This document shows positions 22,273 to 23,209 of a stretch of 64,000 nt of DNA, piece by piece. The position numbers were made by a program, and so were the translations under genes. The stretch comes from Nakamurella multipartita DSM 44233 (GTDB lineage: Bacteria > Actinomycetota > Actinomycetes > Mycobacteriales > Nakamurellaceae). The stretch lies in assembly GCF_000024365.1 (NCBI RefSeq), contig NC_013235.1, forward strand, positions 2,480,001 through 2,544,000. Direction: 5' to 3'. The notes under the pieces were generated by a model. It searched no databases and was not told the origin of the DNA. It worked only from the letters and a program-made list of their open reading frames with translations. Numbering within the stretch: position 1 is the first letter of the stretch; every line of letters starts with the position of its first letter.

Positions 22273-22326
22273 GACAACAAAAATTGTCCACGACAACGCG
22301 AATTGTCGTTGACAACGTGCGTTGTC
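22273..22326. promoter_or_regulatory. Three 16-bp palindromic operators at 19-bp spacing
   Basis: GACAACAAAAATTGTC (22273-22288), GACAACGCGAATTGTC (22292-22307) and GACAACGTGCGTTGTC (22311-22326). All have GACAA, six variable bases, TTGTC, and start exactly 19 bp apart. They cover the likely promoter of the next gene, including a consensus TTGACA at 22309-22314. The array looks like cooperative binding sites for a dimeric repressor, plausibly the HTH protein encoded just downstream. Confidence 0.85.
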
Positions 22327-22338
22327 ACATGGCATCGT
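22309..22338 (+). promoter_or_regulatory. Candidate promoter of the HTH gene
   Basis: TTGACA at 22309-22314, an 18-bp spacer and CATCGT at 22333-22338, which is a weak -10. The +1 would be near the GTG at 22346, giving a leaderless message. The -35 overlaps palindromes 2 and 3. Confidence 0.45.
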
Positions 22339-22345
22339 CTGTGAC

Positions 22346-22732
22346 GTGGAACTCGGCGAGATGTACGACTACATCGCAACCTTGCTGGCGGACGCCGCGG
22401 TGCTCCCGGACGAGCCCGACAGCGAGGAGGAGTTCGAGCTGGCCAAGATCCGGCTGATCTCCCGGGCCCGGCTGGTTCTCGACATCATCGAGGGTCAGGC
22501 CGTGCATTCGTTGCGCTCGTCGCTTCCGCAGACCAGCTATTCCGAGATCGGCGACGCCCAGGGCATCAGCAAGCAGGCGTCGCGCATCCGGCACACCAAG
22601 CTCGAACAGGTGCTCCGGGTGCATCAGCTCGACGGCCGGCGGCACAGCCTGGCCAAGGCCGTCGTCAGCACCAAGCACCGTCGGGCCGCGGCCCCGGTGC
22701 GTCAGGCTCGCCGCCGCCCGCGCGAGGGCTGA
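22346..22732 (+). CDS. Small HTH protein, probable autoregulator
   Basis: 128 aa. An acidic helical N-terminal half (to about 45) is followed by a helix-turn-helix resembling sigma region 4 (SYSEIGDAQGISKQASRIRHTKL, written here as SYSEIGDAQGIS then KQASRIRHTKL, about 72-95). The C-terminal tail is strongly basic (HRRAAAP and ARRRPR). The GTG at 22346 is chosen because earlier codons of the frame lie in the promoter and palindromes; ATG 22361 is an alternative. No family name comes to mind. The three palindromes immediately upstream suggest it binds DNA and controls itself. Its wider targets are unknown. Confidence 0.75.
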   Translation: MELGEMYDYIATLLADAAVLPDEPDSEEEFELAKIRLISRARLVLDIIEGQAVHSLRSSLPQTSYSEIGDAQGISKQASRIRHTKLEQVLRVHQLDGRRHSLAKAVVSTKHRRAAAPVRQARRRPREG

Positions 22733-22897
22733 GCCCGCCGCGGTCGCAGCCCCTGCGACCCGGCTGTCCGCGGTGGCCCGTTCGGGTCAACCGTCGATCC
22801 CGCACACGCAGCGTCCGATCGCTGCGTGCACCCCCCACCAGTGGCTGCCCGCTACCCCGACAACGGGGGCAGCCGTCGACCCGGAAAGGTTCCCGTC
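22733..22897. other. Intergenic stretch with three perfect small hairpins
   Basis: GGTCGCAG-CCC-CTGCGACC (22742-22760) just after the HTH gene is a likely terminator without T tract. CACGCAGCG-N6-CGCTGCGTG (22805-22828) and a CCCCG/CGGGG stem near 22856-22869 lie in the probable leader of the next gene. No reading frame is convincing. Confidence 0.55.
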
Positions 22898-23209
22898 ATG
22901 GCCTCGAACAGCACCGTCAACGGTCCCAAGGTCGTCAACTCCCACACCGGCGCGTTCTTCGGCGCCTCGGTCGCGTTCCTGGCCGCGACCGGCGTGTGGA
23001 ACCTGGCCAACATCTGGATGCTCAACATCCCGGTGCAGCAGCAGTGGATGCTCGGCATGGGCATCATCAGCGCCGTGTTCGCCACCGTCGTGGTGTCCAA
23101 GGTGGTCCGCGACCGCGAGGAGGCCCGTTCGCTGGTCAACGAGGTGCGGGCGGCCCGCTACGAGGAGATCCTGGCCAGCGCGCCGGCTCCGGGCCTGGGC
23201 CACATGTGA
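22898..23209 (+). CDS. YiaA/YiaB-family inner membrane protein
   Basis: 103 aa with a helix pair: FGASVAFLAATGVWNLANIW and, after a short polar turn (NIPVQQQ), WMLGMGIISAVFATVVVSK. This matches the YiaA/B two-helix domain. A charged C-terminal helix (VRDREEARSLVNEVRAARYEE) follows. The ATG is preceded by GGAAAGG. Function of the family is unknown. It stands between an HTH gene and the heme A synthase. Confidence 0.8.
   Translation: MASNSTVNGPKVVNSHTGAFFGASVAFLAATGVWNLANIWMLNIPVQQQWMLGMGIISAVFATVVVSKVVRDREEARSLVNEVRAARYEEILASAPAPGLGHM

What the first reader, a model, noticed from the sequence alone, without database searches (positions are those of the whole stretch)
22273..22732. Three equally spaced GACAA-N6-TTGTC palindromes in front of an unnamed HTH protein
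The sequence shows three 16-bp palindromes with identical half-sites and different centres, starting exactly 19 bp apart, over a consensus -35. The gene right behind encodes a 128-aa protein with a sigma-region-4-like HTH and a basic tail. Selection kept the half-sites but not the centres, which is what an operator array does. The protein, its family and its regulon are not known to me; this is my best candidate for an undescribed regulatory system, perhaps tied to heme/cytochrome genes on both sides.
Basis: partly seen in the sequence, partly recalled or inferred. Interest (0 to 1): 0.85.

Follow-up and report, generated by a model that had tools for sequence, protein, structure and literature searches.

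The report
Self-repressing switch with a recognition code
Three matching DNA palindromes in front of a small bacterial gene are most likely the docking sites through which that gene's own protein turns itself and a neighbouring membrane-protein gene off, and the same arrangement, with a one-letter change in the protein predicting a one-letter change in the DNA, recurs in many actinobacteria.

Summary
The array is real: three exact GACAA-N6-TTGTC palindromes, 19 bp apart, three of the four exact sites in the 6.06-Mb genome, whose size equals that of Nakamurella multipartita Y-104. Array, HTH gene and a neighbouring YiaAB-like two-helix membrane-protein gene form one unit in 7 of 17 genus genomes; an eighth, and one genome of another family, carry a divergent version. 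The haem-gene neighbours are not conserved (0 of 8 loci). The HTH protein belongs, by profile, to a large actinobacterial class that includes the N-terminal part of ClpC2 and the RelI antitoxin. Class members usually stand behind tandem palindromes at their promoter. ClpC2 is a published autorepressor with this layout, so 'undescribed system' is only partly right. New here, as far as I could search: the residue three places after the recognition-helix Gln goes with the half-site, Arg with TTGTC (14 of 15), Gln/His/Ala with TTGAC (85 of 85); 30 of 130 loci gave no call. The window protein has Arg and TTGTC. Best reading: autorepression of the HTH-YiaAB unit. No bench evidence exists.

The parts
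22273..22288 (+). Operator palindrome 1 (distal), GACAACAAAAATTGTC
   Evidence: exact in 2 of the 7 aligned promoters, one mismatch in a third
22292..22307 (+). Operator palindrome 2 (core), GACAACGCGAATTGTC
   Evidence: half-sites identical in 7 of 7 aligned promoters
22311..22326 (+). Operator palindrome 3 (core), GACAACGTGCGTTGTC; covers the -35 end and the spacer
22309..22314 (+). -35 hexamer TTGACA, made by the conserved GTT spacer plus the left arm of palindrome 3
   Evidence: sequence; GTT spacer in 7 of 7 aligned promoters
22333..22338 (+). Probable -10, CATCGT, 7 nt before the GTG (leaderless promoter inferred)
   Evidence: by eye; homologues have CATGCT, CAGACT, CACACT and similar 17-18 bp from the -35; scanner reports no promoter
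22346..22732 (+). HTH protein, 128 aa (P0001); long helix 27-59, HTH about 65-96, recognition helix with K76-Q77-A78-S79-R80, basic tail
22898..23209 (+). YiaAB-like two-helix membrane protein, 103 aa, conserved partner gene
   Evidence: Pfam PF05360 E=2.7e-5, 24.7 bits against a cut-off of 26.6; adjacent to the HTH gene in 7 of 7 type I loci

Best explanation
The 128-aa protein is an autorepressor. It dimerises through its long helix and reads GACAA-N6-TTGTC with a sigma-region-4-like HTH, two or three dimers side by side on the array. Bound dimers cover the -35 and spacer of a leaderless promoter and shut off the HTH gene and the downstream YiaAB-like gene, so the unit is kept low until an unknown signal releases the repressor. 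SHOWN by comparison: the array, its conservation, linkage with YiaAB, class membership by profile, residue/half-site covariation. INFERRED: binding by this protein, repression rather than activation, dimerisation and cooperativity, leaderless start, co-transcription with YiaAB, and an inducing signal (by analogy with ClpC2).
For: At least one exact palindrome before each of the 6 other type I HTH genes and before both type II ones. In G006 a two-palindrome array precedes the YiaAB transcript. Of 20 exact sites in the seven type I genomes, 17 lie at this unit, 15 before the HTH gene and 2 before YiaAB. In the genus 8 of 17 genomes have both YiaAB and a type I or II HTH, 9 of 17 neither. hhalign of the P0001 family against the class: 94.5%, E 8e-8, over long helix and HTH. 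Tandem palindromes before 52 of 67 loci the script called class members, 0 of 12 Lrp-type, 0 of 2 others, 4 of 1620 shuffles. Arg with TTGTC 14 of 15; Gln/His/Ala with TTGAC 85 of 85. Reverse tests: 12 of 13 full TTGAC arrays in the genus directly precede a class HTH and the 13th an operon whose second gene is one; 5 of 6 full TTGTC arrays in 260 genomes precede an Arg-type HTH (three of those five, the window included, were already known). Published autorepression by ClpC2 with the same layout.
Against: No binding or expression data for this protein. The G006 HTH promoter keeps only one intact palindrome. L237 has Arg but TTGAC; L386 has Arg and no palindrome; 29 of 130 class loci show no exact palindrome within 320 nt and 1 is a tie. 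Loci are related, so the Fisher p overstates; at 60% identity the clusters are Arg-TTGTC 5, Arg-TTGAC 1, other-TTGAC 10, other-TTGTC 0 (p 0.0014). The position was picked by eye from the first loci. The P0001-family profile by itself does not reach ClpC2 or RelI in the PDB; the link runs through the class profile. In ClpC2 the authors place DNA binding in the other domain, with mutant data. RelI's authors report no inverted repeats upstream.
Confidence: 0.82

Rival explanations
1. The HTH protein binds the array but activates, or does both: palindromes 1 and 2 recruit RNA polymerase while palindrome 3 represses at high dose.
For: Palindromes 1 and 2 are centred near -65 and -46 from the start codon, usual activator positions; the -10 is weak.
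Against: The most conserved pair includes palindrome 3 on the -35 end and spacer; in class members with 27-29-bp periods such as L242 the last palindrome lies over the likely -10 (by eye); ClpC2 represses.
Confidence: 0.12
2. Another regulator of the cell binds the array; the neighbouring HTH protein is merely its target.
For: No binding data; the own genome has further members of the class.
Against: No other exact tandem array of this half-site in the own genome; the 9 genus genomes without the unit have 4 lone exact sites between them and no exact tandem pair; the half-site goes with the recognition residue of the very next gene.
Confidence: 0.06
3. HTH plus YiaAB-like protein is a toxin-antitoxin-like pair: the HTH protein neutralises and represses a harmful small membrane protein.
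For: The class includes the RelI antitoxin; two-gene unit with patchy distribution and changing surroundings.
Against: In 19 of 28 genomes with a YiaAB-like gene no such HTH was seen near it (motif search in loci of up to 3.3 kb, three of them cut short); no toxicity data; RelI's gene order is different.
Confidence: 0.12
4. The palindromes act as RNA hairpins or are a mobile repeat.
For: Inverted repeats could form stems; a terminator-like match on the minus strand lies inside the array.
Against: If the transcript is leaderless they lie upstream of it; no Rfam match there at E up to 1; not dispersed in the genome; spacing fixed to the promoter.
Confidence: 0.02

Closest known systems
ClpC2 (HTH plus Clp_N) autorepressor of actinobacteria, operator CGTCAAC-n5-GTTGACG (PMC10030653, passages seen)
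   Same: Related HTH domain by profile; palindromes often repeated and overlapping the putative -35/-10 of a leaderless gene; autorepression shown there
   Different: The window protein has no Clp_N match; half-site GACAA/TTGTC, not GTCAA/TTGAC; N6, not N7; 19-bp period, against 28 bp in Nakamurella's own ClpC2-type gene (L242); the partner is a separate YiaAB-like gene
RelI antitoxin of the RelS-RelI pair (PMC13284704, passages seen)
   Same: Same HTH class by the class profile (9sdc, E 6.2e-12); small protein in a two-gene unit
   Different: Its partner is an RNase, and its authors report no inverted repeats upstream and no DNA-binding evidence; the window unit has a clear array and a membrane partner
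Sigma-70 region 4
   Different: No sigma-factor Pfam or NCBIfam match for the 128-aa protein; similar Z with Lrp/AsnC-type HTHs
YiaAB family (Pfam PF05360) without regulator
   Same: Two-helix domain
   Different: In the loci outside the genus, all but G033's showed neither the HTH motif nor the palindromes

Membership tests
ClpC2/RelI-type HTH class | Profile similarity over the long helix and the HTH | tested here: met
   hhalign A1 vs A5, 94.5%, E 8e-8, columns 32-84; A5 finds 8ada (1.1e-18) and 9sdc (6.2e-12). A1 alone finds neither
ClpC2/RelI-type HTH class | Tandem palindromes overlapping the promoter of the own gene (feature of most members seen here, not of RelI) | tested here: met
ClpC2/RelI-type HTH class | Half-site goes with the recognition residue | tested here: met
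   R80 and TTGTC, as in 14 of 15 Arg-type loci with a call, the window's own family included
ClpC2/RelI-type HTH class | Same fold as the ClpC2 N-terminal fragment or RelI | tested here: inconclusive
   model of moderate confidence (pLDDT 75.9); structure comparisons gave no verdict on this
ClpC2 proper | C-terminal Clp_N domain | tested here: not met
   no Pfam match in P0001 at E up to 10 and 5
ClpC2 proper | Operator GTCAAC-n5-GTTGAC | tested here: not met
   GACAA-N6-TTGTC instead
Sigma-70 family | Sigma-factor domains (regions 2 and 4) | tested here: not met
   no Pfam or NCBIfam match in the 128 aa at E up to 10; only an HTH that resembles region 4
YiaAB (PF05360), for the partner gene | Pfam gathering score | tested here: inconclusive
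   24.7 bits against 26.6, E 2.7e-5
Type II toxin-antitoxin | Toxic partner neutralised by the HTH protein | not testable with these tools
   needs growth assays

The most novel reading that the evidence does not exclude
Actinobacteria use one very common design, a sigma-region-4-like HTH that silences its own leaderless promoter through tandem palindromes, with a one-residue recognition code, and plug different partners into it (Clp_N sensor, RNase, YiaAB membrane protein). The window unit would be a membrane-coupled form in which the YiaAB-like protein or its state releases the repressor. The same code implies that in ClpC2 the N-terminal HTH, not the Clp_N domain, reads the operator.
Probability: 0.35. 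Interest if true: 0.8.

Novelty: new variant of a known kind. Interest (0 to 1): 0.62.

Why it matters
A local curiosity opens onto a large, mostly unnamed class of apparent self-repressing switches (one member alone matches something in 168 of 246 class genomes) whose operators seem predictable from one residue. If that holds, their targets become findable, small orthogonal repressor/operator pairs become available, YiaAB-like proteins of unknown function gain a dedicated regulator to study, and the place where ClpC2 reads DNA may need correcting.

Tried and rejected
Haem/cytochrome link: rejected (0 of 8 loci). A wide regulon in the own genome: with one mismatch allowed, 34 sites against 11 for the reversed pattern; apart from C1:4305328-4305394 these were not followed up. 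Single-protein and alignment scans of genome contigs: nothing. Phages and plasmids: nothing. G018 hit: spurious. G613 array hit: nothing recognised nearby. The P0001-family profile against the PDB: no relevant hit. First AlphaFold model (7 rows, pLDDT 64.6) and its Foldseek search: uninformative. Second model (16 rows, pLDDT 75.9): all Foldseek E-values above 1, and neither 8ada nor 9sdc is among the rows shown. Rfam: nothing relevant. PHROGs, NCBIfam, Pfam: no family for P0001. Literature on YiaAB function: only search listings seen, nothing useful.

A first, looser scan found tandem palindromes of any half-site before 40 of 60 class-wide loci and in 37 of 600 shuffles; several of the 40 are GC-rich chance repeats far upstream of Lrp-type genes. 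The stricter scan replaced it. In one search a regex put five Lrp-type loci (L246, L252, L274, L292, L293) into the class and one non-HTH hit (L239) into the genus set; by eye the corrected counts are 33 of 41, 0 of 17 and 19 of 20, and two of the 41 (L263, L265) carry identical genes. One search counted two genes twice; one search is the recount used here.

Full report
OBSERVATION. The window holds exactly three GACAA-N6-TTGTC palindromes, 19 bp apart, where 0.02 would be expected. The whole genome (6,060,298 bases, one contig) holds four; the size equals that published for Nakamurella multipartita Y-104 (passages of PMC3035273), which is how I name the organism. The fourth site is a lone one before a different, ArsR-like gene (by eye). 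TTGACA at 22309-22314 is formed by the GTT spacer and the third palindrome; a poor -10 (CATCGT) follows 18 bp on and the GTG start 7 nt after it, so the transcript is probably leaderless (the simple scanner reports no promoter).

THE UNIT. Homologues of the 128-aa protein occur in 7 of 150 genomes searched, own genome included, all in the genus. The six others each have at least one exact palindrome just before the gene. Seven promoters aligned on the last palindrome (six HTH promoters, and for G006 its YiaAB promoter because its HTH promoter keeps only one palindrome) share ATTGTCGTTGACAA and the following TTGTC in 7 of 7, while centres vary. Exact sites in the seven type I genomes number 20 (G000 4, G003 3, G005 3, G006 4, G011 2, G012 2, G013 2); 17 of the 20 lie at this unit (15 before the HTH gene, 2 before YiaAB in G006) and 3 are lone sites elsewhere. 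In the seven loci the HTH gene is next to a YiaAB-like gene (window 22898-23209). In G006 YiaAB comes first and each gene has its own promoter. An eighth genus genome (G004) and one from another family (G033) have a divergent HTH (type II) with a 20-bp-period array (one of G004's two copies has one mismatch) and one or two YiaAB genes. In the genus 8 of 17 genomes have both kinds of gene and 9 of 17 neither. ctaB and cox15 give no hit in the 8 loci. Outside the genus, 20 of the genomes have a YiaAB-like gene; only G033 showed the HTH, by a motif search in the fetched loci, three of which were cut short. The array pattern itself was found in 2 of 394 class genomes, the own one and an unrelated hit.

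THE CLASS. A profile of types I and II gives hits at E up to 0.01 in 163 of 394 class genomes. One paralogue in the own genome has three GTCAA-N7-TTGAC palindromes at 23 bp in front. I then examined 60 class-wide loci, the first 60 rows without internal stops apart from the own genome, and 21 genus loci; by eye 41 of the 60 are class members, 17 Lrp-type and 2 others. With the stricter scan, tandem palindromes stand before 33 of 46 class-wide and 19 of 21 genus loci that the script called class members, 0 of 12 Lrp-type, 0 of 2 others, and in 4 of 1620 shuffles; corrected by eye, 33 of 41, 19 of 20 and 0 of 17. Periods are mostly 23 or 27-29 bp, and in several members the last palindrome lies over a likely -10 immediately before the start codon (for example L242, by eye). 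Reverse test: 20 loci in 11 of 17 genus genomes carry GTCAAN6-7TTGACN4-12GTCAA. Thirteen match on both strands, that is, hold two full palindromes; 12 of these directly precede a class HTH (10; the G000 and G014 ones not fetched there are L242 and L227), and the 13th precedes an operon whose second gene is one. Of the 7 one-strand loci 1 does.

THE CODE. The position was picked by eye from the first loci. Of 159 loci given, 27 lack the motif and 2 are repeats; the other 130 were compared for the residue three places after the helix Gln and exact palindromes within 320 nt upstream (a recount). Arg: TTGTC 14, TTGAC 1 (L237), none 1 (L386). Gln: TTGAC 42, tie 1 (L272), none 9. His: TTGAC 42, none 13. 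Ala: TTGAC 1. Phe, Val, Trp: none, 6. Spacing goes with it: Gln N7 in 79 of 81 TTGAC palindromes, His N6 in 65 of 66, Arg N6 in 24 of 25 TTGTC palindromes. Fisher p is 3e-16, but loci are related; at 60% identity the clusters are Arg-TTGTC 5, Arg-TTGAC 1, other-TTGAC 10, other-TTGTC 0, p 0.0014. In the 61 distinct loci fetched after the idea arose, Gln/His gave TTGAC in 41 of 41 with a call and Arg TTGTC in 2 of 2; 18 had no palindrome. From DNA to protein: 6 loci in 260 genomes have full tandem TTGTC arrays; 5 precede a class HTH, all with Arg, four of them from one genus, and three of the five (window, G430, G514) were already known; the sixth (G029) shows none; the 10 one-strand loci show none. 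Four relatives that lack the Gln motif were met (L338-L341), and the two whose upstream DNA I displayed lack palindromes.

WHAT IT IS LIKE. The class profile finds the ClpC2 N-terminal fragment (8ada, E 1.1e-18) and the RelI antitoxin (9sdc, E 6.2e-12) in the PDB, and the window family matches the class at 94.5%, E 8e-8, type II at 81.8%, E 1.1e-5; the window family's own profile finds neither structure. ClpC2 represses its own leaderless gene through CGTCAAC-n5-GTTGACG, repeated in many actinobacteria (PMC10030653, passages). Its authors place DNA reading in the Clp_N domain, supported by a double mutant, and describe the N-terminal part as the dimerisation domain. The crystallised fragment 4-72 seems to end just before the recognition helix (KQ at 74 in the Nakamurella homologue, which aligns 8-72 to 8-72). 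That ClpC2 has an HTH region was already noted in the RelI paper (PMC13284704, passages). A 2026 paper repeats the ClpC2 autoregulation (PMC12913811, passages). The AlphaFold model of P0001 puts the HTH on sigma region 4 with middling Z.

MECHANISM. Palindrome 3 covers the -35 end and spacer; dimers on palindromes 2 and 3, plus 1 where present, would block polymerase. Spacing between palindromes (3 bp in type I, 4 in type II) varies while N6 inside each does not, so the palindrome is the likely dimer site. The inducing signal is unknown; the YiaAB-like partner is the first candidate.

NOVELTY. The kind (HTH autorepressor on tandem palindromes) is known from ClpC2. I found no paper on the class-wide operator rule, the code or the HTH-YiaAB unit in the searches, which cover an open-licence library only.

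Noticed in passing
L017:7051-7300 (G006): Behind the YiaAB-side array of G006 comes a short ORF of about 39 codons with a basic tail, close behind the promoter and before the YiaAB gene; real gene or leader not tested.
   Followed up: no
L333:1729-1795 (G000:C1:4305328-4305394): Three GTCAAG-type palindromes, two of them imperfect, lie before a minus-strand membrane-protein ORF followed by an XRE-like regulator, not a member of the class (by eye).
   Followed up: partly
L051, L053, L054, L061: Stand-alone actinobacterial YiaAB genes often seem to have TGAGTA-like inverted repeats upstream, for example TGAGTAGCACTGCTCA in L054, perhaps another operator (by eye).
   Followed up: no
L001:1501-1516 and L026:1501-1516: Lone GACAA-N6-TTGTC sites overlap a TTGACA before ArsR-like HTH genes, a different family (by eye).
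   Followed up: no
window 22742-22828: Hairpin-forming inverted repeats (GGTCGCAG/CTGCGACC, CACGCAGCG/CGCTGCGTG) between the HTH and YiaAB genes; no terminator-like site reported there.
   Followed up: partly
L417 (G029:C160:15486-15529): Full tandem GACAA-N6-TTGTC array with no class HTH found nearby by motif; reader unknown.
   Followed up: no
L338-L341: Relatives of the L284 protein lack the recognition-helix Gln motif; in the two displayed (L338, L341) palindromes are absent as well.
   Followed up: partly
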